Assembly: GCF_001660815.1 (NCBI RefSeq)
Contig: NZ_LYMI01000067.1
Coordinates: 1-64,000, forward strand
DNA length: 64,000 nt
Direction: 5' to 3'
Source of the DNA: Xanthomonas nasturtii
GTDB taxonomy: Bacteria > Pseudomonadota > Gammaproteobacteria > Xanthomonadales > Xanthomonadaceae
The number at the start of each line of letters is the position of its first letter. Within the stretch, counting starts at the first letter, position 1. Both the position numbers and the translations under genes were made by a program. Positions 3 through 15,223 of the stretch are shown here, one piece after another. The notes beneath the pieces are model-generated. The model was given only the letters and a program-made list of their open reading frames with translations. It was not told the DNA's origin and searched no databases.

Positions 3-2165
3 CAGCAAGCAGCCCAGGTGGTGGACGCCAACATTGCCCGTGGCCCAGCTGCGATTGCAGCGACCTATCAAGCTGCTTATCAGCGCAATGGCTGGGACGA
101 CTTCGGCCCTGTGCCAGCGGCCGTGCAGGCTGCCTTGAACCCGGACTCGTTGCAAGCCTCGGACGGCAGGCAGTATCAGCGCGATACCCAGGGCCAGTGG
201 CGACATGATGGTGTTGCTGCCGAAGGCAATGTCCCGTTAGAACTCAATGCAACGCGCGAACGCTTGCAGCCGGCCTTGGAGCAGCATGCGCAGGCAATGG
301 CACAGATGCCGGCAAGGCAAACGCCAACCGCGCAGCAACAAGACCAAGCCAATACCGAAGCGACCTATGCCGCCTATGGCGTTACGCCCAATGCCCAGAC
401 TGCAGGCGCGATCCAGCTTGCGGTGCAACGGACACGTGAGGCAAACGGGATCGATGCAGCGACCAGTTCTTTGGCGTTGGAGCGTGATGCGACCGGTCAA
501 TACTCGGTGGACAGTCCCATCCAGCATTTGAGCCGTGACGCCGATGGTGTGGTGCGTGTTGCAGCAACGACCAGCACTGATGAGATCCATCAGGCACTTG
601 GGCAGCAGCAATCAGTTCGGCAGGAGCAACCACCTTCGACGGGTGCACCCGAGCTGCGCATTGACGCGCAATCGCCCCAAGAGCGCGATGCCTACGATCA
701 AGCATTGCGCGAGGCCAATCGGCAGGGCGTTTCCACGCAAGAGGCGCAACAGGTCGCAAGCTTCGCCGCAACGACCGTCACCGCTCCGCGTGTAGACGAA
801 AGCCAAGCGCCTCAGGCAGCCATTGACGTGCAGCGAGATCGAGACGTTGCACGCACAACCGACGCGCCTGCCGTTGCGGAGACGGCGACTCCTGCTCCTG
901 TCGTGATGCCTGCATCCGTCAACGCGCCGCTGCCAGAAGACGTGCGCCCGGTTGCCAAGCCTACCGAACCGAAGCCCGAGTCTGTCCCACAGCGCGAACC
1001 CCAAGAAACCCGAACATCTGAGGTTGCCGCACCCTCGACAGCCGGCGCAGTCCAACCGAAGGCAGAGGCAGTGGCGCCAGCCTCTGCAAGCGTATCTGCC
1101 CCGAACCTTGGGTCGGCATCATTCGCTTCGACCGTTCCCGATCAAGCGTCTACTCAGGTCGCTGCGCCAGTGTCGCCGGCATCCCATGAAGTGGAAGGGC
1201 TGCGCCTCGGCGACCGAGGGCAAGAAGTCGAGTTCTTGCAGTATCGCTTGCAGCAGGTAGATGCCCGGGGTCCGAACGGCCAGGCCGTGCCGCAAGACGG
1301 GCACTATGGTCCAGAGACCGAGCATGCCGTGAGGCAGTTCCAGCAAGACCAAGGGTTGCCGGCAACGGGCGTTGCCGGCCCAGACCTAGATGCTGCATTG
1401 TCCCAGACACAACACGCGCGCCGAGAAGCTCTGAAACCCATAGAGCCATCATCGGCCAATGCAGCGATGGAGCAGGGCGGTGAGCAGCAAGCCCGAGTAG
1501 GCACGCGACAGAACGATGCGCCATCGGCTGTTCCATTGCAGGCAGAGCAGCAAGAGGCGGTGCGAGCGCCGTCGCCGGCAATTCCAACGCAAAGCGAAGT
1601 GCCGGCGCAGATCGTATTGCCGGAGCGCCAACCCGCTGCCTATGCGTCGTCGCCAGGTTTTGGTGGGACAACTGCCCGCTCTAACGCACACGAACACGAT
1701 GAGGATCGGGTTGAGCAAGCAAGGCCCCTCCAAGATGCCGCTCAGCAGGCGTTTCCCTCTGATCATCGGGATTACGCCTTGTTCTCTGCCATCCAAGCGC
1801 AGCTCCCGAGGGCAACATCTGATGAGAAAACGGCCGAAGTGCTCCATGCCGTCAAAGAGTCAGGGATCGAGCGTGCGGATGAGCTCCGCAAAGTGACCAT
1901 CCAACATGATGTCGCCTTTGTCTTTGGAAAAACGCCCGGCTTTCACTCGGAAACCTCGCTCAACACGCCATCGCCTGGCATCAATCAGACCTTGCAGAAG
2001 ACGGAGGCATTGGATCAACAGCGGGCGCAGGAGATGGTGCAATTTCAGCGCGAGCGCGAAGAAATCGACAAGAACCCAACGGGCCCAGTCATGACGCTCG
2101 CTGCCCACTCTCAGCAACAGGCGATGTCTGGCGGCGATGGAGGCGGTGGTGATGGGGGCGGCTGA
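3..2165 (+). CDS. XVIPCD-like, peptidoglycan-binding modular protein (5' end outside window)
   Basis: The reading frame is open to the left edge (Q-Q-A-A-Q precede the first in-window start, a GTG at 18), so this is the C-terminal part of a longer protein; numbering below counts from that GTG. Residues about 393-465 (GLRLGDRGQEVEFLQ ... YGPETEHAVRQFQQDQGL) match the PG_binding_1 fold. They are followed by a Q/A/P-rich linker and a C-terminal block (about 575-690, beginning PSDHRDYALFSAIQAQLP and containing AFVFGKTPGFHSE) that resembles the XVIPCD signal of Xanthomonadaceae type IV secretion effectors. It ends in a Gly/Asp-rich tail. N-terminal text such as LQASDGRQYQRDTQGQWRHDG looks like a repeat unit of such effectors. 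No catalytic domain is visible here; it may lie upstream. No immunity lipoprotein follows it. The XVIPCD assignment is by eye and moderate. Confidence 0.6.
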   Translation, partial: QQAAQVVDANIARGPAAIAATYQAAYQRNGWDDFGPVPAAVQAALNPDSLQASDGRQYQRDTQGQWRHDGVAAEGNVPLELNATRERLQPALEQHAQAMAQMPARQTPTAQQQDQANTEATYAAYGVTPNAQTAGAIQLAVQRTREANGIDAATSSLALERDATGQYSVDSPIQHLSRDADGVVRVAATTSTDEIHQALGQQQSVRQEQPPSTGAPELRIDAQSPQERDAYDQALREANRQGVSTQEAQQVASFAATTVTAPRVDESQAPQAAIDVQRDRDVARTTDAPAVAETATPAPVVMPASVNAPLPEDVRPVAKPTEPKPESVPQREPQETRTSEVAAPSTAGAVQPKAEAVAPASASVSAPNLGSASFASTVPDQASTQVAAPVSPASHEVEGLRLGDRGQEVEFLQYRLQQVDARGPNGQAVPQDGHYGPETEHAVRQFQQDQGLPATGVAGPDLDAALSQTQHARREALKPIEPSSANAAMEQGGEQQARVGTRQNDAPSAVPLQAEQQEAVRAPSPAIPTQSEVPAQIVLPERQPAAYASSPGFGGTTARSNAHEHDEDRVEQARPLQDAAQQAFPSDHRDYALFSAIQAQLPRATSDEKTAEVLHAVKESGIERADELRKVTIQHDVAFVFGKTPGFHSETSLNTPSPGINQTLQKTEALDQQRAQEMVQFQREREEIDKNPTGPVMTLAAHSQQQAMSGGDGGGGDGGG

Positions 2166-2410
2166 GGCAAGGATTGCCTTCGTCGCAGAGGTCTGGTTTG
2201 CAAGCAGATGGTGCCAACCTCCCTTTATGTCCTGAGAGATATATTAAAGCCTGGAAGAGAGTTGTTAGGGGCGGCGAAAGCGAGGCGTGGCGGGATATAT
2301 GAATTGGATTTGTACAGGTTTCATTAATATTTAAATATACCTATATAATTATATCGGTGGTGGCTTGCGGCATTAGCATTGCCTGGCGCGTTCACCTTAT
2401 TTCAAAACAA
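2166..2410. other. Intergenic, AT-rich tract before oriT
   Basis: No gene is seen between the effector-like frame and the transfer origin. Bases about 2322-2356 are strongly AT-rich (ttaatatttaaatatac and following) compared with the surroundings. That is consistent with a promoter or with a helix-destabilising tract next to an origin of transfer. Confidence 0.5.
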
Positions 2411-2450
2411 CAAGCAAGAGCGCACTTATGGTTTCTGCTTTGCAGAAACC
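2411..2450 (-). other. oriT: Candidate origin of transfer (oriT), IncQ/MobQ type
   Basis: Read on the minus strand, a 9-bp inverted repeat (GGTTTCTGC-AAA-GCAGAAACC, 2450-2430) is followed after one base by TAAGTGCGCTCT (2428-2417). The RSF1010/R1162 oriT, as I recall it, has the same architecture: a GTTTCTC-GAA-GAGAAAC repeat followed by a nic region TAAGTGCGCCCT. The match to that nic core is 11 of 12. The MobA/MobL relaxase gene starts 180 bp away, diverging from the nicked strand as in IncQ plasmids. The sequence match is seen directly; the function is inferred from it. Confidence 0.8.
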
Positions 2451-2452
2451 GT

Positions 2453-2578
2453 GCGCCAACGCTGTGCGTTGGTGCGGTGGCATTGCCACCTCGTTGCTAT
2501 GCTTCGCTAGGCAACACAGCTTCTTCAAAACCCTGAGATTCAAATCTCGTTGTTGTCGAGTTCGCTTATCTCTCGACA
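2453..2578. repeat. Tandem run of five further hairpins between oriT and relaxase gene
   Basis: After the oriT repeat come consecutive inverted repeats: CCAACGC-tgt-GCGTTGG (2456-2472, extendable by a G-U pair and two more pairs), GGTGGC-att-GCCACC (2476-2490), GTTGC...GCAAC (2493-2515), GAGATT/AATCTC (2535-2548) and TGTCGAG-N11-CTCGACA (2554-2578). Spacing is only 0-20 bases. They may be secondary oriT structure, binding sites for accessory Mob proteins, or a structured 5' leader of the relaxase mRNA. Confidence 0.65.
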
Positions 2579-2629: not shown

Positions 2630-4279
2630 ATGGCGATTTATCACGCAACAATGAAGTCTTTCAGCCGAGGCAACGGCGACTCGTCGGTCGCAGCAGCGGC
2701 TTACCGAGCAGGGTTTGATCTGCTCGATACAAGCACGGGGCTTGGTCACAATTATTCCCACCGAGGCGGTGTCGATTTCCATCAGATGCTTGCCCCGAAG
2801 GGTGCGCCTTCGTGGTGCTTCGATGCCCAGTATTTTTGGAACGCAAATGAAGCGGCCGAGACGCGCAAGAACGCGCGCGTTTGCCGAGAAGTCGAAGTAT
2901 CGCTTCCGCATCAACTCGATCCACACCAACGAAGAGTGCTCGCTTTGGCGCTTGGTCAATTGCTCGTCGAGCGCTTCCAAGTCGCTGTGCTGGTGGCAGT
3001 CCACACGCCAAGCAAGCTGGGTGATCAGCGCAACCACCATGTGCATTTGCTGATGTCAGCCAGACAGGTCGGGCCAGGTGGACTGGGAGAGCGCGCCTGT
3101 GCTGAGTTTGATGCACGCCAAGGCGGCGGCACACGAGCGTTGCGACAAATCCGCAAAGACATTGCTACCGTCATCAATGCACACTTGAAAAATGCCGGCA
3201 ACGCGGCTCGTGTCGATCATCGCAGTCTCCGAGCACAAGCGCAGGAGGCCGCGCGCAATGGGGAGTTTGAACGCGCCCGCGAACTCACGCGCAGGCCTGG
3301 CAAGCACTTGGGCAAAGCCAAAGTGGCGGTGATGCGCAAAACGAAGTTCACCGCAGAAGTGAAAGGTGCAGGTGGAAAAGCTGCGGCATTAGCGCTTTCG
3401 AAGCTTGTCGCTGAGCACATGAAAAAAAGTGGCAGCTTCGTGCATGAGGTGCCGCCATCTCACAGTCATGCGGCAGCACTTCGGGATCGGGCCAATGCAA
3501 AAGAGTCTGGCTTGGAAGGGCGCACAACGGTTGGGCAGGGGCGATCGTCAGGCGCAGAGCGGGTGCGGCAGATCAAAGAGCGTTTGGCGCGTTCACCAGC
3601 GCCAAGCGCAGGACTCTACACGCCTTATAGCGGTCAGACCCGACATCTTGGTCGCGTGACGCGTCTGGCTCGGTCCTCGGGCCGACAAGACGCGGAGGTC
3701 CTAAACCAAGAGGCGCAACTGATCGAAGACTGGCTCGAAGCGCAGCGCGAGGTGGCTCAGCAGTCTCTCGAAGTCTTGCGGCAGATCCCGGGTATCCAGA
3801 TTGAACCCGAGTTCCAGCGGGCGCACTCCGCACTCATTTGCCGGCGGGTCGACAGCTACGCCACAAAGCCTTTCTTGTTCGAGGACACTGAGATGCTTGC
3901 TCGCTCAATCAGCAGGTATGCCCATACGCTGGTGCGACCCTACAAAGCGCGTGTGGCCGTGCTGGATGCGCAAGCCAAGCTTGTTGAGCAAGAAGGCAGC
4001 GGAGACGCGCAAGCGGTGGCGAGGGCACGCCAGCGTTTAGGGAGGGCAAAGGTGCATGTCTCTCCTCGCATCCAAGCGATCCAGCAATGGCGCATCAAGC
4101 GGGCTCGAAAGACGATGGTGGAAGCAGCTGAGGCCTTGGAGAAGAATTTTGCCCCACAGCCGATCGAGGTGCTGACGCCTGAGGCATCTGGCGATGATGC
4201 GCTTCCACCACAGGCCGAGGCCGAAGGTGATGCCGGGCATTGGGAGTTGAAGTTCCGTCCTCCCAAGCCAAGTCTATGA
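2630..4279 (+). CDS. mobA: MobA/MobL-family relaxase (MOBQ)
   Basis: This is the conjugative relaxase expected to nick the adjacent oriT and lead the strand into a recipient. The N-terminus MAIYHATMKSFSRG closely follows MobA of IncQ plasmids. Tyr25 (AAAAYRAG) sits where the RSF1010/R1162 catalytic tyrosine lies, and the metal-binding motif appears as NHHVHLLMSAR. The start at 2630 is chosen because AGGAG lies 9 bases upstream; an in-frame ATG at 2588 has no such site. The protein is 549 aa, with a basic, helical C-terminal half typical of the family but without a visible primase domain. It carries no coupling protein or secretion genes next to it, so mobilisation would depend on a helper. 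Confidence 0.9.
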   Translation: MAIYHATMKSFSRGNGDSSVAAAAYRAGFDLLDTSTGLGHNYSHRGGVDFHQMLAPKGAPSWCFDAQYFWNANEAAETRKNARVCREVEVSLPHQLDPHQRRVLALALGQLLVERFQVAVLVAVHTPSKLGDQRNHHVHLLMSARQVGPGGLGERACAEFDARQGGGTRALRQIRKDIATVINAHLKNAGNAARVDHRSLRAQAQEAARNGEFERARELTRRPGKHLGKAKVAVMRKTKFTAEVKGAGGKAAALALSKLVAEHMKKSGSFVHEVPPSHSHAAALRDRANAKESGLEGRTTVGQGRSSGAERVRQIKERLARSPAPSAGLYTPYSGQTRHLGRVTRLARSSGRQDAEVLNQEAQLIEDWLEAQREVAQQSLEVLRQIPGIQIEPEFQRAHSALICRRVDSYATKPFLFEDTEMLARSISRYAHTLVRPYKARVAVLDAQAKLVEQEGSGDAQAVARARQRLGRAKVHVSPRIQAIQQWRIKRARKTMVEAAEALEKNFAPQPIEVLTPEASGDDALPPQAEAEGDAGHWELKFRPPKPSL

Positions 4280-4985: not shown

Positions 4986-6659
4986 ATGGCCATAAAAATT
5001 CATGCTCCATCAAGCAAGATCTTAAAGCGTTCCGAAAAGTTATTCGCACTTCAGCAGGATGACTGGAATGACTACAGCTTCCAGACGCTTTATCACCTTT
5101 ACTATCGCCCGAAAGTAAAGGAGCCGGAAAACGTTACCTACATTGGCGGGGTTAAAATTCTCAAACAGGGCCAAACTGCCGGTTCTCGACTCATCAAGAA
5201 ACCTTTCATTCGGCTAGGGGATGAGTGGGTGTCAGTAGGGACTTCGCTCGACTATTACCAGCGTCTCAATGAGATCCCTCGTAGACATCGCTCGAGAATA
5301 ATGACAGCGCTTCAGGATGCAGTCGCTAACCCGGATCTTGTAAATAAATTCGAGAACGAGGTGGGATGGGGAAAGTCAATTTTTAGGGACACGACAGATT
5401 GGAGGGATTTTATTCGGGATGCGAGAATTCTCTACCAAGGGGATTTCAAAACTCTTGTCGGCATGGACGAATTTTCTTTCCGGCCGGCTGGGGCCGATGA
5501 TCCTATCAATTTTAATTTCGAAGCGCCTAAGCCCCATCACTACTCAGGGTCATATCGACGAATCGGCCCGAGTCGAAACCCAGTTCTGCTGCCTGAGCGA
5601 ATCATCGTTATGGTCGGCCTTAATGGGTCAGGGAAGAGTACGATTTTGTCGAGGCTCTCACATCTCGCCTATGCCTCCCCGCATGAAAGAGTTCAGCCTC
5701 AGTTCGTCGCAATGGGCGAGATCACTCCCAAAGCCATTGGCTTCATGCGGGTGATCACCATTTCCTACAGCGCCTTCGATAGCTTCGCAGTTCCCGGCCT
5801 TGCAGCTAGAGACCTTTCGCAAATTACTGATGACATTGAAAGCGGTGATAGCCGATTTGTGTTTTGTGGCCTTAGAGACGTTGTTGCAGAGGTACGCGAT
5901 GATCTGGAAAAACTGCAGGTCGAAGCAGAAGAAGATCAGAAGATCAAGCCGCCACAGGTATCTATGGAACGGCGTAACTCTACGAGGCTAAAATCGATCG
6001 ATGCGCTTGCGAATGAATTTGAGGAATTGCTTAAAGCAATCAGGAAAAATGGTGGGAGCAAATTGTTTGAAACGGCAATTGAATCGCTGGTAGCCGACCC
6101 ATCATTTCGAGATCTGAAGTTCCAGCTTGCTGACCTCATTTCCAAGCCTCAGAGATCTCGGCGTCATTTCATGAGCTGGAGTACCGGTCATAAAATAGTT
6201 CTGCACGTAATCGTTTCGCTAGTAGCGAACACGAGGCCGCAGTCACTTGTTCTTTTCGACGAGCCGGAAACGCATTTACATCCACCGCTGATGGCCGCTT
6301 TGATGCAAGCAGTTCGGATGATCTTGACGGAGGTTAATGCCTACTGTGTTGTTGCGACACATTCACCTGTGTTGCTGCAGGAGACTCTCGCCTGTCACGT
6401 CCGCTACGTCAGACGCAATGGTGCTGAAATCACCATTGAGAAGCCGAGGATTGAAACATTCGGGGAAAATATCGGCATCCTTACTTACGATAGTTTTGGA
6501 CTTACCGCAGCGAGCACCGACTACCACAATGCTCTCGACAAGCTGGCCGAAGAATGCGACTCCATTGAGAAGGTGGAAACGGCTTTCGAACACGGCCTTA
6601 GTGCCCAAGCCCGCGCTTACGTGCTTTCCAAGCAAGCGAAGCGTAGGTTGAAGGAATGA
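4986..6659 (+). CDS. Septu-like AAA ATPase (PtuA-type)
   Basis: Predicted ATPase partner of the HNH nuclease encoded directly downstream, by analogy with the Septu anti-phage system (PtuA-PtuB), in which the ATPase controls the nuclease. Walker A is GLNGSGKST (211-219), an ABC-signature-like SWSTGHK is at 397-403, Walker B is LVLFDEPETHLHP (421-433) and the switch histidine lies in ATHSPVLLQE (458 on). About 200 residues precede the ATPase core and are not recognised. The start has AAGGA 11 bases upstream. Its stop overlaps the next start (ATGA), implying translational coupling. Base composition is lower in GC than the chromosome to the right. It could instead be another OLD-like ATPase/HNH defence pair; the general type is firm, the Septu name less so. 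Confidence 0.75.
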   Translation: MAIKIHAPSSKILKRSEKLFALQQDDWNDYSFQTLYHLYYRPKVKEPENVTYIGGVKILKQGQTAGSRLIKKPFIRLGDEWVSVGTSLDYYQRLNEIPRRHRSRIMTALQDAVANPDLVNKFENEVGWGKSIFRDTTDWRDFIRDARILYQGDFKTLVGMDEFSFRPAGADDPINFNFEAPKPHHYSGSYRRIGPSRNPVLLPERIIVMVGLNGSGKSTILSRLSHLAYASPHERVQPQFVAMGEITPKAIGFMRVITISYSAFDSFAVPGLAARDLSQITDDIESGDSRFVFCGLRDVVAEVRDDLEKLQVEAEEDQKIKPPQVSMERRNSTRLKSIDALANEFEELLKAIRKNGGSKLFETAIESLVADPSFRDLKFQLADLISKPQRSRRHFMSWSTGHKIVLHVIVSLVANTRPQSLVLFDEPETHLHPPLMAALMQAVRMILTEVNAYCVVATHSPVLLQETLACHVRYVRRNGAEITIEKPRIETFGENIGILTYDSFGLTAASTDYHNALDKLAEECDSIEKVETAFEHGLSAQARAYVLSKQAKRRLKE

Positions 6660-7549
6660 GGAATCTTCCCTTACCACATCGCGACTTGTCACGGGATGAT
6701 CTGATCGCCTCCATTCGTAAGTACAGATATCGTGGCGTAAGAGGGCATCAGTTGACCGAAGATAACATCACGAGCCTGCTCGCCATCTACGATCGCTATG
6801 ACGGTGACATGGGTGCAGCCAGTGAGATGCTGAAGGGTAATGATTTCCCTGCGTCATTGATTGATGCGCTGGACGCCGCTTATGACAAAACGCAGGAAGA
6901 TCGCGCTCTTTATCCGCTGCGTCAACGCCTGTTCAAGGACGTGGGGCTGTGTCCCGTCTGCGGCATCAAGACCGCTTCTGAACTTGACCACTTTTTACCT
7001 CGGGCCCACTTCAAGCCACTGGCGATCTATGCGCGAAATCTCATACCAAGTTGCCACGATTGCAACCACATCAAGCTCGCCGGCTTTGGGAATCAGAGTG
7101 GGGATGAGTTGGCTTTTATCCACGCCTATTTTGACTCGCTGCCTGACTTGAATTTTTTGGAGGCTAAGATTGATATCTATCAAGGAGGGCTGGTCGTCAC
7201 TTTCCAGGTGTCGACAAATGTTGGGCTGGATGAGGACATCAGTAATCGATTGAGGAACCAGATTAAAAGGCTTGAACTGAACGAGCGTTATGAAAAAGAA
7301 ATCAACACCTTTATCATGTCGCATGCAACCGCAGCCCACCGCGAATACGCTCGGGGTGGTCATGCAGGTGTTAGTAATCACTTAAATATTCAAGCCCGTC
7401 ATGAAGCTCATGAACTTTACACCAACCATTGGCGCCCGACGCTTCTGCGAGCTCTTGCGAGACATGATGCTTTCGTGAATGGTGGGTTTGTCGATGTTTT
7501 TAGGGTGCCTCAGCACATTTTGGACGACCTGTTTGAAAATTCAGATTGA
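6656..7549 (+). CDS. HNH endonuclease, partner of the ATPase (PtuB-type)
   Basis: A 297-aa protein with a zinc-containing HNH core: C99-P-V-C102, a SELDHFLPR segment with D111-H112, N128, and C133-H-D-C136-N-H138. The first 95 residues are helical and may form the surface that meets the ATPase; the C-terminal 150 residues are not recognised. Coupling to the ATPase gene by a 4-base overlap points to a two-component complex that would cut nucleic acid when the ATPase senses infection, as known for Septu. No reverse transcriptase is present, so it is not the retron form of this effector pair. Confidence 0.75.
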   Translation: MRNLPLPHRDLSRDDLIASIRKYRYRGVRGHQLTEDNITSLLAIYDRYDGDMGAASEMLKGNDFPASLIDALDAAYDKTQEDRALYPLRQRLFKDVGLCPVCGIKTASELDHFLPRAHFKPLAIYARNLIPSCHDCNHIKLAGFGNQSGDELAFIHAYFDSLPDLNFLEAKIDIYQGGLVVTFQVSTNVGLDEDISNRLRNQIKRLELNERYEKEINTFIMSHATAAHREYARGGHAGVSNHLNIQARHEAHELYTNHWRPTLLRALARHDAFVNGGFVDVFRVPQHILDDLFENSD

Positions 7550-7627
7550 TCGTTCTCGGTGGGAGTGCTAGCTTGAGAAGTTGATTCAGATTTCGCTGAC
7601 TAAATTGTAAATTATTTTTCTTGGGGA

Positions 7628-8491
7628 ATGCATATCCAGATGGCGGATAAAAGCAAAGAAGTGCTGGGGTTGTGTGCGCTGTGTGGTCCTGATTGTGACA
7701 AGCAAAAAGCATTGAGGATGAGCCACCATTTGACGAAGTCAACGTACAAATACTTCTGTAGGTCAAAAGCTGAAGGTACGAAGCTGCTACTGTCGCAGGA
7801 AGGTGAGAAGGTGTTTTCGTTAGGTAAGCAGATCGTTCAAAATTTGCTCTGCGATGAATGCGAAAGACTGATGTCCAAGGAGGGTGAGGATTATTTTTCA
7901 ACCGAAGTGCTAAAAATAGACAGAAAAAAAAACCTGCCATCGCCGATTTATCGTATCCTTCGACAGAGATTGGTGCCAGCTTGGAACTGTTTGGCACCAC
8001 GGGCGATTTATAACAAAAATTTGGTTCTGAGTGTTGGAAGTAATTTTTTTCCAGCCATCAAATCACGTCAGCTATATCATTATGCGGTAGGTTTTTTCTG
8101 GAAGGCCACATTTAAGGGGTGGCCACAATGCCCCCCGCTACCTCTCGATCAAGCCCTGATTGAGCAGATGCGCAAGTTTCTGCTAGGTGGGGATTTCGTC
8201 CAAGGGTACATCGTCAGGGTTGTTCCATCATTCTGGCATGAGAAAAATGGAGTGGCCCTTCCAAGTCTCATCCAAGGGCAACCATATTTCTCGGTCCTGC
8301 AATTCGATTTTTATTTCGAGAGAGCTGAGGCGCAGTACAAGAGCGCCATGTCGATGGACGCTGTGCCACTGCTTTACACTGTAGACTCGATTAAGTCCGA
8401 ACGGTCGTATCGCGGCATGGTTGCAAACTATAAGAGGGCTAAGCAAAGTGCCTCTGCAGCAGGAACAGAGCTGTCTTGGTTAGACCAATAG
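7628..8491 (+). CDS. Unrecognised CxxC/SHH/CxxC protein, HNH-like zinc site
   Basis: I do not recognise this 287-aa protein as a named family. Its N-terminal 80 residues have C16-A-L-C19, S32-H33-H34 and C75-D-E-C78-E. This layout resembles treble-clef/HNH-like domains of uncharacterised defence-associated proteins (CxxC ... SH ... CxxCE). The remainder is mixed alpha/beta with aromatic patches and no further motif. The start is uncertain: the ATG at 7628 has only gggga directly before it, and a second ATG (MADKSKE) lies at 7640. It follows the Septu-like pair by 78 AT-rich bases in the same direction and shares its low GC, so it may have arrived with it. Confidence 0.6.
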   Translation: MHIQMADKSKEVLGLCALCGPDCDKQKALRMSHHLTKSTYKYFCRSKAEGTKLLLSQEGEKVFSLGKQIVQNLLCDECERLMSKEGEDYFSTEVLKIDRKKNLPSPIYRILRQRLVPAWNCLAPRAIYNKNLVLSVGSNFFPAIKSRQLYHYAVGFFWKATFKGWPQCPPLPLDQALIEQMRKFLLGGDFVQGYIVRVVPSFWHEKNGVALPSLIQGQPYFSVLQFDFYFERAEAQYKSAMSMDAVPLLYTVDSIKSERSYRGMVANYKRAKQSASAAGTELSWLDQ

Positions 8492-8539
8492 CTGCCGCCC
8501 GAAAAATTTATGTGTCCGTTTTATGTTGAGACCCTCACC

Positions 8540-8701
8540 TCACGATTGAGATCGAGTAGGTAAGCTCGCCGGACGCATGCAGTCGAGCTTCCCTGCTTGC
8601 TCGCAAACCCATGTCACGAGTTCCTGCTGATCTTTGATGAGCTTTGTCATCCGCTCTTCCTTGATGATGTCGTTTTGAGAAATGCACTTGTCGTTAAGCA
8701 T
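8540..8701 (-). CDS. Possible 53-aa small protein downstream of the kinase gene
   Basis: An ATG-to-TGA frame encodes MLNDKCISQNDIIKEERMTK and so on to 53 aa, rich in charged residues and with predicted helix (RMTKLIKDQQELVTWVCEQ). It lies 52 bases beyond the kinase stop, in the same direction, and could be the last gene of that operon. No strong ribosome site is seen and the frame has a stop 9 codons upstream. It may equally be a remnant of a larger gene. Low confidence. Confidence 0.3.
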   Translation of the reverse strand: MLNDKCISQNDIIKEERMTKLIKDQQELVTWVCEQAGKLDCMRPASLPTRSQS

Positions 8702-8753
8702 GGTCTCGAGCTTGGCTACATGTGCTTATTGCGTGCACGCCATAGGGCACTGA

Positions 8754-10412
8754 CTAGCCAGAACACCAACGCAAGACAATCAGAACAAAGACGATAAGCG
8801 CGATCCAAGCTCCTGCGCCCATACGTTTAGGTGAGCTGGTTCTGCGAGGCCCTGATGATGCCTGATGAGAGCTGGGGCGGGGCGCGGACCCAGTTGGCCT
8901 TGGGACAGCCTGAGGCGTCTGTCGCTGCATCCTTTGAAGGACTTGAGCGTTAGGAGTGCCCGGCGGGGGGAGTGGCTTCGGAGCTTGTTGGCTCGTGTTT
9001 CGAGGAACTGTATTTCCCGCTCCACCCATACCCTTAAGGATGTTTTCATTTCGACCAGCGGTAACAACAGGTGCTTTACCGCCGCGCAATCGGAAGCGCG
9101 CTTCTACCTCTGTAAGTTGCTTGATCTGACCTGGATTTTCGATGCTAATACCGATGCTGACATACGATATCTTCCCGGCTTGACCGTGATAGGGCGGCTC
9201 TACCAGGCCGGTCACGCTGACCCAACGGCCATTCCAGCTGCTGTTGGGCTCCGAGGGGAACTGTCGTAATGCCTCAGACCAAATTGAAAGTTTTACGGAC
9301 TTGCCCGTCCAATCGCCAAAATTGATGAAGATAAAAGGCTTTTTGTTCCTGCCGTATCGCTTTTGAGTGACCTCAACGATCCTGCCAATCAACTCCACGC
9401 GGCTGCCGACCTGAGCTTCGACTTGGGCAAAGTTCGCCGCATCACAGACCGTATAAGGGCTTTGGTAGGCAATGTCTTTCGGCTTGCCCTGTGGGTTGAA
9501 CACAATTGTGTTCGGTCCCAGTCCGCGCTGAACACTGAAGTCGGCAAGTGTCGGAACTTGATCAAAAGGCCCATCCGCAAGCTGCGCAAGCGACTGCGCG
9601 GGAACCGTCAATCCCGGAAGGCCTAGAACTTGATTGAAGATGACGGAGGTGCCGGGGTCAAGGAAGTCGTTCCGCCGAAAAACGATAGCGCTGGGTTCGG
9701 AGTTCGAGGCTTTCCAAAGTCCGGGAGATACGGCCAGGGCCTGTAAAGCGACATCAAGTGTGATGAAAGAAAAGCGATCAAGCTGCTCGTTGAAATTGGA
9801 CGCCGTGCGCTTAGGGTGCTGGAAGTTGGCTTGGCCAAGTTCAGTCGCAGCACTCCCACGCAGGGCTTCGACAAACATGCCGTCATAGTCAATGAGCTGG
9901 ACGGAACTACCGTCTGCGTTGACCATCAGGTTCTCAGGCTGAATGTCGCCATGAGCAATCTGCTGTGCTTCCAAATACGCGGACAGAGCTGCAAGAGCCT
10001 GGCGAAGCTTGGTTAGCGCTGCAGCATTTCCGTGGTTGCGTTCCAAGAACTCGGCAAGCGTGGTGCCCTGAGCCCACTCCATTTTGACGATGGGGTAGAG
10101 GTTCCCATCGATCAGGATCCCGTTAGGGATAAAATCGAACGGCAGGAAGTAGGGGCTCGCCAGTTGCTTGAGTCGGAGTGCAATGGCCTGATAGCGCCGT
10201 TCCAGATCGTTGGATTTTTTGTGAAAACAACGCAGCGCAAAACGCTTTCCGCCCGTCTCAACCGTATAGGTCAGTGCAAAGCCGCCACACAAAGCCAATG
10301 GCAACCCCAGTCCGGTGGTCCGCAACTGCCCGGCTCTAAGCTGTGGATCTTGAATCGCACGCGCAGGCGCTTGTAGTGCTTCGTTGTATTTCTCAAGCGA
10401 TGGATAGTTCAT
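8754..10412 (-). CDS. Membrane-anchored protein kinase with OB-fold (TerY-P-triad type)
   Basis: Predicted Ser/Thr-type protein kinase. The catalytic loop is H154-G-D156-IQPEN161-L and the metal site D175-Y-D177-G replaces DFG. The glycine loop is degenerate (LCGGFALTYT) and the beta-3 position reads FALRCF, with Arg61 where lysine is usual. Residues about 335-425 (VELIGRIVEV ... KPFIFINFGDW ... VSVTGLVEPPYHG) look like an OB-fold nucleic-acid-binding domain. A Pro/Ser-rich linker leads to a C-terminal membrane helix (WIALIVFVLIVL), so the kinase should face the cytoplasm. Its start overlaps the phosphatase stop (ATGA). The kinase/PP2C/vWA trio corresponds to the TerY-P triad described from comparative genomics of tellurite/stress systems. 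Confidence 0.75.
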   Translation of the reverse strand: MNYPSLEKYNEALQAPARAIQDPQLRAGQLRTTGLGLPLALCGGFALTYTVETGGKRFALRCFHKKSNDLERRYQAIALRLKQLASPYFLPFDFIPNGILIDGNLYPIVKMEWAQGTTLAEFLERNHGNAAALTKLRQALAALSAYLEAQQIAHGDIQPENLMVNADGSSVQLIDYDGMFVEALRGSAATELGQANFQHPKRTASNFNEQLDRFSFITLDVALQALAVSPGLWKASNSEPSAIVFRRNDFLDPGTSVIFNQVLGLPGLTVPAQSLAQLADGPFDQVPTLADFSVQRGLGPNTIVFNPQGKPKDIAYQSPYTVCDAANFAQVEAQVGSRVELIGRIVEVTQKRYGRNKKPFIFINFGDWTGKSVKLSIWSEALRQFPSEPNSSWNGRWVSVTGLVEPPYHGQAGKISYVSIGISIENPGQIKQLTEVEARFRLRGGKAPVVTAGRNENILKGMGGAGNTVPRNTSQQAPKPLPPPGTPNAQVLQRMQRQTPQAVPRPTGSAPRPSSHQASSGPRRTSSPKRMGAGAWIALIVFVLIVLRWCSG

Positions 10413-11155
10413 AGATGTCCGGCGCCAGTCAACGCGGCGATGATGAGGGTGGTGTCATCCCGCCTCATGCTCCCTTTGGCTCGCTGTTCTTCGACAAGGC
10501 TGACAAGCTCTTCCAACTCCCTGACAGCATGAAGTCGTTCAAGGGCAGTGGGATCACTGCGCTCCTGGTGTTCAAGCAGCCACGCGGCTAGCGCGTCTGT
10601 CATGCATAAGAGAAGCCGATATCCATGGGTCTCATAGGGCCAAACCACCTCAGTCCAGACGCCGCTGCCATCTTCAAACAAGAGGGCATTGAGATCGGGC
10701 TTGGTGCTGATCAATGTTGGATGAAGGGAGAACTGCTCCGAGCTCTGGTAGGGAGCGCACGCGAGCATCTGCTCACCATCGGTGAGCGCGGCAAACGAAT
10801 CGCCGATCGCAGTGACCCTGATCCGTAGCTGTTCGGCCTCGTCTTGTGCAACAAGCAGGGTGCCGAAGCTGCCGCGCTCATAGGCGGCAGCCTTCGACCA
10901 AGACAGATTTGGCGCGTCATGGAGCGCTTCGTATTGCCGTGTGGATGTGGCTATCGCATCAGACAGATTGGCAGGGTGCTCTAAGAACTGGTCCACAAGA
11001 AGCGCGGCCCAGTTCTTGGCGTCGAATGATTCGGATGCACCGTCAGACAGCACGATACGTCCGGACGCCGCTGCCAAACGATAGACGTCTTCATTAGCTT
11101 CCGGTGCGTCCAAATGTTTGGCAACAGAGCCTTCGAACAAGATCTGGATCGACAT
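10409..11155 (-). CDS. PP2C-family protein phosphatase
   Basis: A 248-aa PP2C-type phosphatase likely to reverse the partner kinase. Metal-binding and structural motifs are present in order: NEDVY (21-25), SDGAS (38-42), GSFGTLLVA (about 95), AIGDSFA (about 116), MTDALAA (about 187) and RRDDTTLII (near the C-terminus). It starts 2 bases after the vWA gene stops and overlaps the kinase start by 4 bases, so the three proteins should be made together. No membrane segment or sensory domain is fused to it. Confidence 0.8.
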   Translation of the reverse strand: MSIQILFEGSVAKHLDAPEANEDVYRLAAASGRIVLSDGASESFDAKNWAALLVDQFLEHPANLSDAIATSTRQYEALHDAPNLSWSKAAAYERGSFGTLLVAQDEAEQLRIRVTAIGDSFAALTDGEQMLACAPYQSSEQFSLHPTLISTKPDLNALLFEDGSGVWTEVVWPYETHGYRLLLCMTDALAAWLLEHQERSDPTALERLHAVRELEELVSLVEEQRAKGSMRRDDTTLIIAALTGAGHL

Positions 11156-11157
11156 GG

Positions 11158-11991
11158 TCAGCGCAGCTGGGCTGCTCGCGTTCCGATATCGAAGAAGTCC
11201 ACAATCTCCGCAGTCTCTGCGTTGAACATGAAGCCGCGTGACTCCATGGTCGCCTTGATTCCCTTTTCCTGAGCAGCTTGTTGCAGGTGCGGGGGCAGGG
11301 GGCTCGACATCCGGAAAAGCAGTTTGGCGTAGTTGTCAGACAGACCAGCGTCCGAAATCGGGAATGTCACTGGATCGCCACCGCTAGCGCTTACGTGCAG
11401 GTTGAACAGCAAAACATTGCCGTCATTCGTAGCAATTTGTTGGAGTTGCTGGGCAAGGCCTTCCGGGTCACCGTCAGTGGATTCGCCGTCAGTGACATGG
11501 AGAACGGTGGGCGGATAGCTGTCTGGATGCGCATCGCACCAGGCCACAAGTTCAGCGGCTGCGCTGGTGATGGCATTACACATCGGGGTGCCGCCAGAGG
11601 CGCGTGCTTCAAACCAGACCGGGAACTTGATGGACTGGCTGACCAAGCCACCTGCGCCATCGTCGACCCGCTTGACTCGGTCTTCAACGCGCAAAGGATT
11701 GGCTTCGATTTGAGAGATCGGGTGGAGCACGGTGTGCGAGAGCGCACCCGCCAAACCGTTCTGCGCGTCAGAGTTTGAGTAGCCAAGCACACCGACTTCG
11801 AAGTAGTTGCGCGTTCCCTCAGACTTGGTGCACCGGGTGATCAGTGTTGCAAGGGTGCGGTTGAGCACGTCAGCGACGAACTGCGCCTTGGACTTCCCAT
11901 TCGTCATTACTTCCTGCATGGAGCCGGATTGATCGACCAAAAACAAGAAGGCGGTTGGGCTAGTGCGACTAATCTCTGCGGTATAGCTCAT
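11158..11991 (-). CDS. von Willebrand factor A domain protein (TerY-like)
   Basis: A 277-aa, essentially single-domain vWA protein. The metal-ion-dependent adhesion site is visible as D20-Q-S22-G-S24 (FLFLVDQSGSM), with a conserved threonine region (GGTPMCNAI) and the HVTDGESTDGD loop. The first gene of the vWA-PP2C-kinase operon, it is preceded by AGGAG five bases before its ATG. In TerY-P triads the vWA protein is thought to be a scaffold or phosphorylation substrate. No signal peptide is seen, so it should be cytoplasmic. Confidence 0.8.
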   Translation of the reverse strand: MSYTAEISRTSPTAFLFLVDQSGSMQEVMTNGKSKAQFVADVLNRTLATLITRCTKSEGTRNYFEVGVLGYSNSDAQNGLAGALSHTVLHPISQIEANPLRVEDRVKRVDDGAGGLVSQSIKFPVWFEARASGGTPMCNAITSAAAELVAWCDAHPDSYPPTVLHVTDGESTDGDPEGLAQQLQQIATNDGNVLLFNLHVSASGGDPVTFPISDAGLSDNYAKLLFRMSSPLPPHLQQAAQEKGIKATMESRGFMFNAETAEIVDFFDIGTRAAQLR

Positions 11992-12131: not shown

Positions 12132-13061
12132 TTACGCCCTCCCAAAGACCTGAGCAAGTAGTTCCGACAAAAAAAGGAGTAAATTGGCATGGGCTGCGAG
12201 AGCTTCTTCTTTCGAAACTGCTTTTCCGTAGCTCACACTTGCATCTGTATAGAGCAAGGATGCCAGCTCAAGATCGACATGAAGATCGCCTTGGTCATTG
12301 AGTGCTTGTGCAAGCTTGACAAGTTCATGATTTGATTTGAAAGGTATGCCCTTACTCGTGAGAAGTCCCTTCATGACTTTCTCAGCACATGTAGCGGTAT
12401 CTCGTCTTGCTTTACCATAGCTGCGCTCAACGCTCGTCAGTGCTTCGACGCTATGGTTGTAATCTATGCGTGCTTGTCGAAAAAGCGGGTCATCGCTTTG
12501 GGAGAGAGCGTCTAGAAATGTCAAGGCGTTCAAGCCTATGAGAAAGCGTGATGCGATTCCATCGAGTGCTTTTTCATCCAACGTGTCAGCATACGACTGA
12601 GTCATTCCCTCAAAGCAATCGAGCATGTTCACATCGATAGGGCCGCGACTAATGATGTTTTCGTTTTCTCCTTGATGAAGGCGTCGATCACACATCAAGC
12701 GTAAGCTGCCGTAGCTGTAAGGTCCACGCACTTTCCATGCGCGGTGTTCAAGTGGAATGATGAAAAAGCCCAATGAAGGTAGAACTTTGATGTCTTCCCC
12801 ATATCGACGCTCATACCAGGAGTGAGCTCGTTGAGAGAGCCAGGCCGCAGAAAATGGTCGGCTGTCACTAGAAGGATCGCCGCCAAAAAGAATAATTTTT
12901 TGTCCTTTGCCGTAAGTTTGGGCAATGAGAATAGCCGCATTGCCAGGACGTTGATGGATATGCAAGTCTAAAGCGTTGAAGTGCTCGTCCAGACCCATCA
13001 TCATTTGATCAAAGTCGTGGTCCGACTCGGGCTTGGGTGGGGCGTTCCATTCCGTGTTCAA
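12132..13061 (-). CDS. HEPN-like domain protein of unknown function
   Basis: 309 aa. The start is a TTG, chosen because GGAGT sits 5 bases upstream and no ATG is nearby. The C-terminal 85 residues (YNHSVEALTSVERSYGKARRDTATCAEKVMKGLLTSKG, broken here into its pattern: long helix, CAEKVMKGLL, HELVKLAQAL, LLYTDASVSYGKAV) have the four-helix rhythm of HEPN domains, many of which are RNases or toxin/defence components. The canonical R-x4-6-H catalytic pair is not evident. The N-terminal 200 residues are not recognised. It lies alone between the vWA operon and the integrase, both also on the minus strand. Confidence 0.5.
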   Translation of the reverse strand: MNTEWNAPPKPESDHDFDQMMMGLDEHFNALDLHIHQRPGNAAILIAQTYGKGQKIILFGGDPSSDSRPFSAAWLSQRAHSWYERRYGEDIKVLPSLGFFIIPLEHRAWKVRGPYSYGSLRLMCDRRLHQGENENIISRGPIDVNMLDCFEGMTQSYADTLDEKALDGIASRFLIGLNALTFLDALSQSDDPLFRQARIDYNHSVEALTSVERSYGKARRDTATCAEKVMKGLLTSKGIPFKSNHELVKLAQALNDQGDLHVDLELASLLYTDASVSYGKAVSKEEALAAHANLLLFLSELLAQVFGRA

Positions 13062-13192: not shown

Positions 13193-14719
13193 TCAATTCC
13201 TCCAACCAGTTGCCCGCGTCTTGGTCGTCCTCTTCGTTGCCGCCTGCTCGCGCCGTCGCTCCATGTGGCGAACCTGCTTGAACGCACGATCAAATTGCCC
13301 TGGCGTGTAGGCGGGCAAGGGAAGCGGAGGGCCAAACTGTTCAATGGCCAAAAAGCGAGCGGGGACAGAAGGCGGATCAACGTAATGCTTCAAGCCCGGT
13401 GGAAGCGTCAACTCGTGGCCGGTGATTTGCTGGGAAATCGGAAGCGAAATGCCGTGCTCATTGACCAGCGAGTTGGACAGAGTGTGTCGAAAGCAGTGAA
13501 AGCTTTTGAGCCGTTGGGTCAGCCCTTGCTTAATCGCATAGGCCCGGAACTGATCCCCGAGCGCATCGCCATAGCCGTTTTCGGCGTTGTAGGGCAAGTG
13601 CGGGAACAGTCGTTCAAAGCCTGCGCGCTTGACCTCATCCACGTAGACCAAGAACCCAGCCTCGATCAGGGATGTGGGCAGGGGCACAAAGCGGGAAGAG
13701 TGGGGGTTCTTCAAGCGCTGATCCGGCTTGGCTCCCCGGAAATGCACGCCCCAGAAGTCGCCGACCTTGCCGATGTCGTCAACATAGAGCTGAGCGACCT
13801 CATTGACGCGAGCGCCCGTTGCAAATCCCAGGAGCGTGCCAAACCACCGATGTGGATACTTGCTGGCCCAGGAAGTGAACGCGTTCAGTTCAAGCAGCGC
13901 TTCAAGCTCGGCTTGGCTAAACGGATCACGGCTCGGCTCGTCGGTAAGCGACTTGGCACGATTGAGGATGGCTTTGTGAGGCGCCTTGCTAATCAGGTCT
14001 TCGTTCGCCAAGGCGTTGAAAAAGGACGCAATACGATCCCGATGCTTTTCCTTGGTGCGCATGCTCAGCACTTCATGACCACCTTGCCGTGCCTTGTTCA
14101 GGATTTGGACAGGGGTGAGGCCAGCGAACACCGCCTTCTTGGTAGCGTTGCTCGGGTAGTGCTCAAGCGCATCCAGGAACTTTCGGACGTCATCGGTCTT
14201 GTAGTCTTCGACTGGCTTGTCGCCGACAAGGGCCACAAACAGTCCCAGGCTGTGCTCGGTGTCGAGCACGTTTTTCGCGCTTCGCCCCACACGCCGCATT
14301 TCACTGATGTGGATGGTGGCGCGCTCTGACAGCAGCGGTCCTGCGCTTTTCACAGAAGCCAGTTGCTGAAGAGGGAGGTGTTTCAGTGCGTCCAGCAGCC
14401 GGGCGTGATCCTCAGCTCCGTTGGCAGAGAGCTCCACGCCACCGACTTTGATGGTGTAGGGGCGGGCTTCGTTCCCTTGCAACGCGGCCAGAGCCTGGCT
14501 CAGCAAATCGTCCTGCATGCCCGCTCCTTGCCGCATCTGATCGAATGCTTCCGAGAGTGCCACAGCCGTTCGAGCTACGGCCAGTCGGGCAGCATCACCA
14601 AGGGCCAAGTGAACGGGACGGACAAGGTAGCGCGAGCCGATGAAGGCTTGCAGGTCGGTCGGGACGAAAAAGCGCACATAGAGCCCAGCAGGGCGGCGCA
14701 AAAAATAAGGCTTCGGCAC
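13193..14719 (-). CDS. int: Tyrosine recombinase / integrase of an ssrA-inserted element
   Basis: 508-aa site-specific tyrosine integrase. The N-terminal LRRPAGLYVRFFVPTDLQ block is the arm/DUF6538-like region common in such integrases. Catalytic residues are R304 (ATGARVNEV), H408-x-x-R411 (FHCFRHTL), H435 (ITGHE) and the nucleophile Y446 (LKHYVDP). The start is a GTG. It lies 108 bases from the 3' end of ssrA with no gene between, the usual place for an integrase that uses that RNA gene as attachment site. A basic C-terminal extension (about 475-508, ERRREQAATKRTTKTR) is present. Confidence 0.92.
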   Translation of the reverse strand: MPKPYFLRRPAGLYVRFFVPTDLQAFIGSRYLVRPVHLALGDAARLAVARTAVALSEAFDQMRQGAGMQDDLLSQALAALQGNEARPYTIKVGGVELSANGAEDHARLLDALKHLPLQQLASVKSAGPLLSERATIHISEMRRVGRSAKNVLDTEHSLGLFVALVGDKPVEDYKTDDVRKFLDALEHYPSNATKKAVFAGLTPVQILNKARQGGHEVLSMRTKEKHRDRIASFFNALANEDLISKAPHKAILNRAKSLTDEPSRDPFSQAELEALLELNAFTSWASKYPHRWFGTLLGFATGARVNEVAQLYVDDIGKVGDFWGVHFRGAKPDQRLKNPHSSRFVPLPTSLIEAGFLVYVDEVKRAGFERLFPHLPYNAENGYGDALGDQFRAYAIKQGLTQRLKSFHCFRHTLSNSLVNEHGISLPISQQITGHELTLPPGLKHYVDPPSVPARFLAIEQFGPPLPLPAYTPGQFDRAFKQVRHMERRREQAATKRTTKTRATGWRN

Positions 14720-14826: not shown

Positions 14827-14851
14827 TGGTGGAGGTGGGCGGAATCGAACC
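14827..14851 (-). other. Presumed attachment site at the ssrA 3' end
   Basis: The terminal T-arm/acceptor bases of ssrA (GGTTCGATTCCGCC then CACCTCCACCA, minus strand) border the foreign region and restore an intact RNA gene. Integrases of this class recombine within such 3' ends. No second copy of this sequence is visible between 1 and 14.8 kb, so the other junction must lie left of the window. Confidence 0.6.
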
Positions 14852-15223
14852 GCCGTCCGGAAGCACTCCATCCCCAGCACTACATGCTTAGCCCTCCGTT
14901 AGATCTCATTCCCGGGCAGCACGGTTGGCAAAGCGCACCTGGAAACCAGCCTGCTTTATCTAACCGGTAGCTGACAGGCAGCCACTACCGATGGTTCCGT
15001 GATAATGACCCTACACCTACGAGCACGGGCACAAGTAGGTTCGGGGGTTCGCCTTAGGCGGCTGTAGAACTACAACTAAAGCCAATTAAGCGGCGATAGC
15101 GAAGTCCGAACCGTAGTTGTCATCGTTGGCAACTAAAAGTTTGCTGCTGGATTAACGAGGAAAGCTGCCCCCTCGGCATGCGCCAAGCGACTTCGCGACC
15201 CCCGTCGAAACCAGTGCACCCCC
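14827..15223 (-). ncRNA. ssrA: Transfer-messenger RNA (tmRNA)
   Basis: The RNA rescues stalled ribosomes by trans-translation with SmpB. The 5' end GGGGGUG pairs with CACCUCC before the encoded CCA, with one G-U pair, forming the tRNA-like acceptor stem. The 3' T-loop GGTTCGATTCC is intact. The tag frame runs from GCC (15128-15130) to TAA (15086-15088) and encodes ANDDNYGSDFAIAA, the Xanthomonas-type degradation tag ending in AA recognised by ClpXP. The element to the left recombined at its 3' end without destroying it. smpB lies 2.7 kb away. Confidence 0.97.

What the first reader, a model, noticed from the sequence alone, without database searches (positions are those of the whole stretch)
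2411..2450. IncQ/RSF1010-like oriT on a chromosomal element
On the minus strand a GTTTCTGC/GCAGAAAC inverted repeat is followed by TAAGTGCGCTCT, matching the IncQ nic region (TAAGTGCGCCCT as I recall it) at 11 of 12 positions. A MobA with Tyr25 lies 180 bp away. Small MOBQ origins are well known on plasmids but less so on ssrA-borne Xanthomonas islands.
Basis: partly seen in the sequence, partly recalled or inferred. Interest (0 to 1): 0.75.

Follow-up and report, generated by a model that had tools for sequence, protein, structure and literature searches.

The report
Folded DNA-transfer origin on Xanthomonas island
A bacterial chromosomal island carries a DNA start site for cell-to-cell transfer; many related sites share an extra folded arm that pairs with the expected cutting site, which may keep it closed until the transfer enzyme opens it.

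Summary
On the minus strand a 9-bp hairpin (arms 2450-2442 and 2438-2430) is followed by TAAGTGCGCTCT (2428-2417), 180 bp upstream of a 549-aa MOBQ relaxase with Tyr25. It is not chance: hairpin plus core lies upstream of mobA on the opposite strand in 94 of 101 rows examined, and in 35 genomes of the genus all 15 exact copies of an 18-mer spanning the core lie beside a mobA.

So it is very probably an oriT of the MOBQ class. It is not IncQ: no RepB fusion, no adjacent mobC, RSF1010 MobA only 31% identical.

It pairs at 5 or more of 6 positions in 48 of 54 oriTs (random flanks 2.7%) and changes with the core, also in plasmids fetched later. RSF1010 lacks it; pMV158, of another relaxase family, has the same layout, and there MobM melts the base to expose the nick. 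I propose a nic-closing hairpin switch. Nicking, switching and transfer are untested. The island also encodes a coupling protein, a second relaxase and defence genes.

The parts
2409..2456 (-). oriT: bulged double hairpin plus nic core and about 10 nt past the predicted nick
   Evidence: homology with other islands restarts at 2408-2413
2430..2450 (-). inner hairpin, 9 bp (2450-2442 with 2438-2430), loop AAA
   Evidence: fold; 304 of 324 Watson-Crick cells in 54 non-redundant oriTs, shuffled mean 168
2451..2456 (-). outer arm GCGCAC, complementary to GTGCGC of the nic core (2425-2420)
   Evidence: 5 or more of 6 pairs in 48 of 54 oriTs, or 43 of 59 when the arm is not scored and no shift is allowed; background 1.0-2.7%; compensatory changes
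2417..2428 (-). nic core TAAGTGCGCTCT; nick predicted between 2421 and 2420 (TAAGTGCG/CTCT)
   Evidence: by alignment with RSF1010 TAAGTGCG/CCCT (PMC4814116); not mapped here
2456..2514 (.). three further short hairpins between oriT and mobA
   Evidence: 226 nt, z -4.1; 1 of 200 shuffles as good
2630..4279 (+). mobA, 549-aa MOBQ relaxase (Tyr25, H125/H137/H139)
   Evidence: PF03389 E 5e-39; 4HT4 E 2e-15, 2NS6 E 3e-6; alignment of 12
3..2165 (+). 3' part of an effector-like gene (cut by the contig end): peptidoglycan-binding domain, at most XVIPCD-like tail
   Evidence: PF01471; hhalign probability 77% over 41 columns to eight XVIPCD domains, but hmmsearch with the same set not significant (E 0.5 or worse for these tails); no PF20410 match on this contig; intact 1230-aa relative in G325
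4986..7549 (+). Septu-like defence pair (ATPase and HNH protein)
   Evidence: PADLOC PDC-M01A E 4e-106, PDC-M01B E 1e-45
8754..11991 (-). STK_OB, PP2C and TerY kinase-phosphatase-TerY triad
   Evidence: PADLOC E 8e-226, 2e-91, 1e-162
12132..13061 (-). HEPN-domain protein
   Evidence: PF05168 E 5e-5; no PADLOC match
13193..14719 (-). tyrosine integrase of the island
   Evidence: PF00589 E 1e-8; 95-96% identical copies beside ssrA in three relatives
14827..15223 (-). tmRNA (ssrA), probable integration target
   Evidence: ARAGORN

Best explanation
This is the oriT of a mobilisable chromosomal island, used by the MOBQ relaxase MobA encoded 180 bp away. MobA is expected to bind the inner hairpin arm, cut the minus strand at TAAGTGCG/CTCT and stay on the 5' end, so that DNA left of the site enters the recipient first and mobA last (inferred from RSF1010, which has the same orientation relative to mobA). 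The newly recognised outer arm (GCGCAC) pairs with the nic core, giving a bulged hairpin whose base lies at the predicted nick. I propose that the folded form holds the nic core in duplex, and that MobA must melt the outer stem, keeping the inner hairpin, to cut, as MobM does at the pMV158 oriT (IR3 to IR1 switch). Shown: the sequence, the fold, the conservation, the covariation and the relaxase motifs. Inferred: the nick position, the switch, the direction, and transfer through a T4SS supplied from elsewhere. The confidence below is for 'oriT of this MobA'; for the switch as its mode of control I would say about 0.5.
For:: same place and strand upstream of mobA in 94 of 101 rows, relaxases down to 31-37% identity. 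(54 of 57 non-redundant): inner stem 304/324 Watson-Crick cells (shuffled mean 168); outer stem 294/324 (shuffled mean 281, maximum 290 in 20,000); outer arm 5 or more of 6 in 48 of 54; with the arm not scored and no shift, 43 of 59; background 1.0%, or 2.7% with the shift allowed. Outer pair 6, just past the predicted nick, is paired in 40 of 54, pairs 1, 3, 4 and 5 in 51-54. Compensated core changes: GTGGGC with CCCAC in one clade (L044/L069/L070) and separately in L076; CCGCGC with CGCGG in L086/L090. Of 20 plasmid loci fetched afterwards, 15 had a credible oriT and 11 of these had the arm, including two more compensated cores (L158, L160); 98% of cells paired in ten equal-length oriTs, against 23-50% when slid. 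Same layout as pMV158 IR3 (PMC5863519, passages).
Against: No nicking or transfer data. The outer arm is nearly invariant, so its covariation rests on about five lineages (two of them plasmids not placed on the tree), and the inner stem of the L044/L069/L070 clade is imperfect (6 of 9). The parser scored the arm; without that, 16 of 59 fall below 5 of 6. RSF1010-type oriTs (L108, L161) and two TraA-type ones (L147, L152) lack the arm, so it is not needed for MOBQ nicking in general; 5 of 20 plasmid loci gave no credible oriT. The arm might instead be a protein site, or act in mobA mRNA. A paired core could also hinder termination on single-stranded DNA.
Confidence: 0.93

Rival explanations
1. 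oriT as above, but the outer arm is a second binding site for MobA or another relaxosome protein on double-stranded DNA, so its complementarity to the core reflects a repeated protein motif and not a folded state. (This rivals the switch, not the oriT.)
For: Relaxase repression of its own gene through inverted repeats is described for MobM (PMC5863519, passages). The arm is nearly invariant while the inner stem varies freely.
Against: The arm changes in step with the core in about five lineages, pairing weakens at the predicted nick, and the single strand folds into it. A protein motif could also co-change with the relaxase, so this is not excluded.
Confidence: 0.25
2. The hairpin is an RNA element or attenuator of mobA, not an oriT.
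For: It lies in the 180 bp before mobA, and the plus strand would form the same hairpin.
Against: No terminator-like or promoter-like match in 2160-2700; the nic core is shared with RSF1010, where it is the nicking substrate; strand and position match MOBQ plasmids.
Confidence: 0.03
3. A decayed oriT on a fixed island, no longer used. (This rivals present use, not the identity of the site.)
For: No conjugative T4SS was found on the parts of the island seen; in G000 PF03135 finds one VirB4, on contig C32 with two XVIPCD effector genes 6-12 kb away.
Against: Near-identical oriT and full-length mobA (88-97% identical) in 13 other genomes of the genus, near ssrA in some and tRNA-Arg(cct) in others; the hairpin is kept by compensatory changes in more remote ones.
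Confidence: 0.1

Closest known systems
RSF1010/R1162 oriT with MobA (MOBQ1, IncQ1)
   Same: TAAGTGCG nic core, hairpin just upstream, nicked strand opposite to mobA, Tyr25 relaxase of the MobA_MobL family
   Different: no outer arm in RSF1010-type L108 and L161; hairpin-core spacing one base longer; MobA there is the N-terminal part of RepB and is accompanied by MobB and MobC (PMC2200642, passages); relaxase 31% identical over 228 aa
oriTs of small MobQ plasmids (e.g. pLM12P1, Delftia pBR1.1, Sphingobium pUT2, N. gonorrhoeae pJD4)
   Same: same core (GTGGGC in pJD4), four-base bulge and an outer arm complementary to the core
   Different: on replicating plasmids, four of those fetched with an annotated 'mobilization protein' gene divergent from mobA; the window has no ORF of 70 aa or more at that place
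pMV158 oriT IR3/IR1 with MobM (MOBV1)
   Same: long hairpin with a bulge in the right arm and the nick at the 3' end of that arm; inner part alone forms IR1 (PMC5863519, passages)
   Different: another relaxase family and sequence; switching shown there, not here; an additional IR2 there
Integrative and mobilizable elements of Proteobacteria
   Same: integrase at ssrA, relaxase, oriT; no MPF gene found in the parts seen
   Different: a 2017 review (PMC5704250; passages and sections 9 and 10 read; its later sections on other types not read) says none of the described proteobacterial IMEs was of the canonical type with its own relaxase and no CP or MPF protein; this island also has a VirD4-type coupling protein

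Membership tests
MOBQ oriT/relaxase module | relaxase of the MobA/MobL family with Tyr near position 25 and a three-His motif | tested here: met
   PF03389 E 5e-39; Y25, H125 and H139 invariant and H137 in 90% or more of 12; 4HT4 and 2NS6
MOBQ oriT/relaxase module | inverted repeat followed by TAAGTGCG nic core | tested here: met
   published MOBQ consensus differs by one base of spacing and one base after the nick
MOBQ oriT/relaxase module | site-specific nicking at the core | not testable with these tools
   needs purified MobA
IncQ (RSF1010) plasmid family | MobA fused to RepB primase | tested here: not met
   549 aa; only MobA_MobL passes the Pfam cut-off
IncQ (RSF1010) plasmid family | mobC divergent from mobA next to oriT | tested here: not met
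   no ORF of 70 aa or more confined to 2166-2409; the neighbour is the effector-like gene; shorter ORFs and mobC elsewhere not searched
IncQ (RSF1010) plasmid family | repA/repC/oriV replicon | not tested
   no search for IncQ rep genes was made; none appears among the Pfam hits
Integrative mobilizable element | integrase and attachment at a conserved gene | tested here: met
   integrase abuts the tmRNA 3' end, also in three relatives
Integrative mobilizable element | both attachment repeats delimit the element | tested here: inconclusive
   an 88%-identical copy of the tmRNA end (49 nt) lies on contig C34, but the contigs are not linked
Integrative mobilizable element | no own mating-pair formation system | tested here: inconclusive
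   PF03135 hits only C32 in G000; other MPF types not searched; island incomplete
pMV158-type IR3/IR1 switch (works like) | bulged hairpin whose base ends at the nick | tested here: met
   against PMC5863519; nick position by analogy only
pMV158-type IR3/IR1 switch (works like) | relaxase binding melts the base and exposes the nick | not testable with these tools
   needs footprinting

The most novel reading that the evidence does not exclude
These islands carry their own VirD4-type coupling protein and an effector-like gene next to oriT, and in this genome the only VirB4 found by PF03135 lies on a contig stretch with genes for XVIPCD effectors of the bacteria-killing T4SS. The island may adapt that chromosomal killing machine into a DNA-transfer channel, exporting its DNA from this hairpin-gated oriT together with a toxin.
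Probability: 0.1. Interest if true: 0.85.

Novelty: new variant of a known kind. Interest (0 to 1): 0.47.

Why it matters
The structural rule (inner hairpin, 4-nt bulge, outer arm complementary to the nic core, nick at the base) may help to locate MOBQ oriTs that homology tools miss: in PMC9791958 (passages) oriTfinder found no oriT for the MOBQ relaxases of two P. savastanoi plasmids, though the authors proposed one by other means. It predicts a nick-closing switch in MOBQ relaxosomes that single and re-paired mutants can test, and suggests that MOBQ and MOBV origins share a control principle which RSF1010, the textbook case, lacks. It also shows how Xanthomonadaceae islands that carry defence genes could be mobilised.

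Tried and rejected
Rejected: chance match; terminator or promoter; strict IncQ membership. The 12-mer count alone was uninformative. DNA-level search of plasmids with the mob region found nothing. The XVIPCD family model does not hit the effector tail, hmmsearch with eight XVIPCD domains is not significant, and profile comparison gives only 77% over 41 columns, so I call it XVIPCD-like at most. T4SS link: by my reading of the lists, 67 of 81 MobA-positive genomes hold a PF03135 VirB4, against 128 of 314 without MobA; this is confounded by relatedness, and 14 MobA-positive genomes lack it, so it decides nothing. Island ends: C34 holds an ssrA-like repeat, not linked.

Rows dropped: one search dropped 16 of 101; re-parsed 98 of 101 into 57 non-redundant; one search used 54 (out: L067, parsed at a wrong place because of the insertion; L066, a short MobA without oriT; L108, RSF1010-type). 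The 54 still hold a doubtful parse (L023). The 101 rows include loci fetched twice from two collections. Not all matches were fetched: the 30 loci it gave plus 40 that I chose, and further stretches. The 20 plasmid loci were my choice from the hits listed: 18 by MobA (13 credible oriTs, 10 with the arm) and 2 by similarity to the RSF1010 oriT (L160, L161; 2 credible, 1 with the arm). The ten oriTs were my choice among those with a 9-bp inner stem and 3-nt loop. In one search the 6 sites with 1-2 mismatches are less tidy: 3 lie beside a MobA (G331, the second of G231, G295) and 3 do not (G064, G175, G303).

Full report
What is there. One search shows, on the minus strand of 2456-2417, GCGCAC GGTTTCTGC AAA GCAGAAACC ATAA GTGCGC TCT. 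MobA starts at 2630 on the plus strand, has PF03389, Tyr25 and three His, and resembles the 'Nicking enzyme' 4HT4 and the 'Mobilization protein A' 2NS6 (NES and R1162 MobA by PMC6856555, passages). Neither strand has a promoter- or terminator-like match in 2160-2700.

Is it more than chance? The 12-mer alone is not. The hairpin and core together are: DNA fold -16.8 kcal/mol, z -3.9. A MobA search in 395 genomes drawn from the family gave 81 with a relative at E <= 1e-20. In 101 mobA starts from fetched loci (some fetched twice), 94 have hairpin plus core within 350 nt upstream on the opposite strand. The seven exceptions: one locus fetched twice (G231), where about 200 bp are inserted and the oriT is intact about 410 bp up; three copies of a short second MobA; and two remote relatives (L021, L023). 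A pattern scan of 35 genomes of the genus found 15 exact sites, all 15 beside a mobA listed, and 6 sites with 1-2 mismatches, of which 3 are beside one.

The fold. In 54 of 57 non-redundant oriTs the inner stem varies freely yet is paired (304 of 324 cells; shuffled mean 168). The outer stem is paired in 294 of 324 cells (shuffled mean 281, maximum 290 of 20,000); 48 of 54 have 5 or more of 6 pairs, against 1.0% for other 6-mers of the same upstream regions and 2.7% when the one-base shift allowed by the parser is allowed there too; with the arm left out of the scoring and no shift, 43 of 59 have it. Pair 6, just past the predicted nick, is paired in 40 of 54; pairs 1, 3, 4 and 5 in 51 to 54; pair 2 in 43, with 11 G-T. 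When the core changes, the arm changes with it: GTGGGC/CCCAC in one clade (L044, L069, L070) and in L076, and CCGCGC/CGCGG in L086 and L090; the MobA tree places these apart. A GTGCGT change at pair 6 (L022, L049, L068) is not compensated in L049 and only by a G-T in L068. As a later test I fetched 20 plasmid loci and parsed the inner stem and core without scoring the arm: 15 had a credible oriT, 11 of these had the arm at 5 or more of 6, including two further compensated cores (Sphingobium yanoikuyae L158, N. gonorrhoeae pJD4 L160). RSF1010-type L161 (and L108), and TraA-type L147 and L152, lack it; L142 has 4 of 6 plus a G-T; five gave nothing credible. On ten equal-length oriTs that I chose, the count of structure pairs gives 98% of cells paired, against 23-50% when slid, and 25 doubly changed cells against 6.8 shuffled; nearly all of this is the inner stem, the one doubly changed outer pair being L160.

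How it may work. The RSF1010 substrate is cut at TAAGTGCG/CCCT (table in PMC4814116, passages seen); by alignment the cut here is between 2421 and 2420 of the minus strand, at the foot of the outer stem. In pMV158 the IR3 hairpin has a 12-bp stem, a 4-nt loop, a 3-nt bulge in the right arm and the nick at the end of that arm; MobM melts the base to IR1 and exposes the nick (PMC5863519, passages seen). The same geometry with a relaxase of another family suggests the same kind of control. This is inference.

The island. The window starts at a contig end. Homology with two relatives in few contigs (G325, G381) shows that contig C47 precedes it: a short second MobA, a VirD4/TraG coupling protein (PF02534 E 7e-110), two small paralogues, then the effector-like gene that runs into the window. 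The order MobA2 - coupling protein - effector - oriT - mobA is seen in G325, G381 and, across contigs, in G000; other relatives were not fetched far enough to tell, and G342 shows none of the first three in 27 kb upstream. Downstream of mobA come a Septu-like pair and a STK_OB/PP2C/TerY triad, a HEPN protein, the integrase and ssrA. Of the relatives scanned, three have ssrA and four tRNA-Arg(cct) near mobA (L008, L016, L067; L007, L010, L060, L064). Among 16 elements (the window and 15 close relatives) the sequence left of the oriT falls into four kinds, and homology between kinds ends 5 to 26 nt past the predicted nick, commonly at 8 or 11. In L015, L016 and G381 the left homology to the window ends at the effector stop codon and in G325 about 40 bp before it, so variable cargo fills the interval next to the nick. 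Relaxase-mediated recombination at nic is a possible cause; so is ordinary replacement bounded by selection on the oriT.

Known or new. MOBQ oriTs with this core are well known on plasmids (PMC3832669, passages seen). Cryptic chromosomal origins recognised by R1162 Mob proteins were reported by Meyer 2009, of which I saw only the title in a reference list. MobA beside TraD and an integrase in X. perforans, and MobA/MobL on X. cannabis islands, are mentioned without an oriT in the passages that I saw (PMC6425879, PMC12662623). I found no description of the outer arm in MOBQ oriTs in eight searches of the held library and the passages opened from them; most subscription papers are not held, so it may be in print.

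Noticed in passing
G000 C47:2053-3756 (locus L066, minus): VirD4/TraG-type coupling protein on the island, followed by two small paralogues and the effector-like gene; coupling protein and effector in the same order in G325 and G381.
   Followed up: partly
G000 C47:5480-6370; L058:218-1114; L062 (G381): A second, short MobA (about 296 aa) without a recognisable oriT upstream; it lies about 15-18 kb from mobA in G219, G254, G325, G336 and G381.
   Followed up: partly
window 2169-2409 and equivalent intervals in L015, L016, G381, G325: Variable stretch (240 bp here, about 6.8-9.3 kb elsewhere) between the effector gene's end and the nick; four kinds of left flank join within 5-26 nt past the predicted nick.
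   Followed up: partly
L058:9056-13516 (G325): Cargo next to oriT looks like an HlyD/ABC peptidase-transporter exporter with a small protein bearing a double-glycine-like leader (read by eye; the scan failed).
   Followed up: no
window 2456-2514: Three further short hairpins between oriT and mobA; 2409-2520 is 96% identical in G231.
   Followed up: no
window 4986-11991: Two candidate defence systems (PDC-M01 Septu-like; STK_OB/PP2C/TerY) as island cargo.
   Followed up: partly
L003:16299-16364 (G000 C34): Two copies of the tmRNA 3'-end repeat (88% over 49 nt, and 16 of 17), possibly the far end of this or another ssrA island.
   Followed up: partly
L067 (G231), about 200 bp between oriT and mobA: An insertion that leaves oriT and mobA intact.
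   Followed up: no
L160 (N. gonorrhoeae pJD4): Inner hairpin arm GTTTCTC as in RSF1010, but with a GTGGGC core and a fully complementary GCCCAC outer arm.
   Followed up: partly
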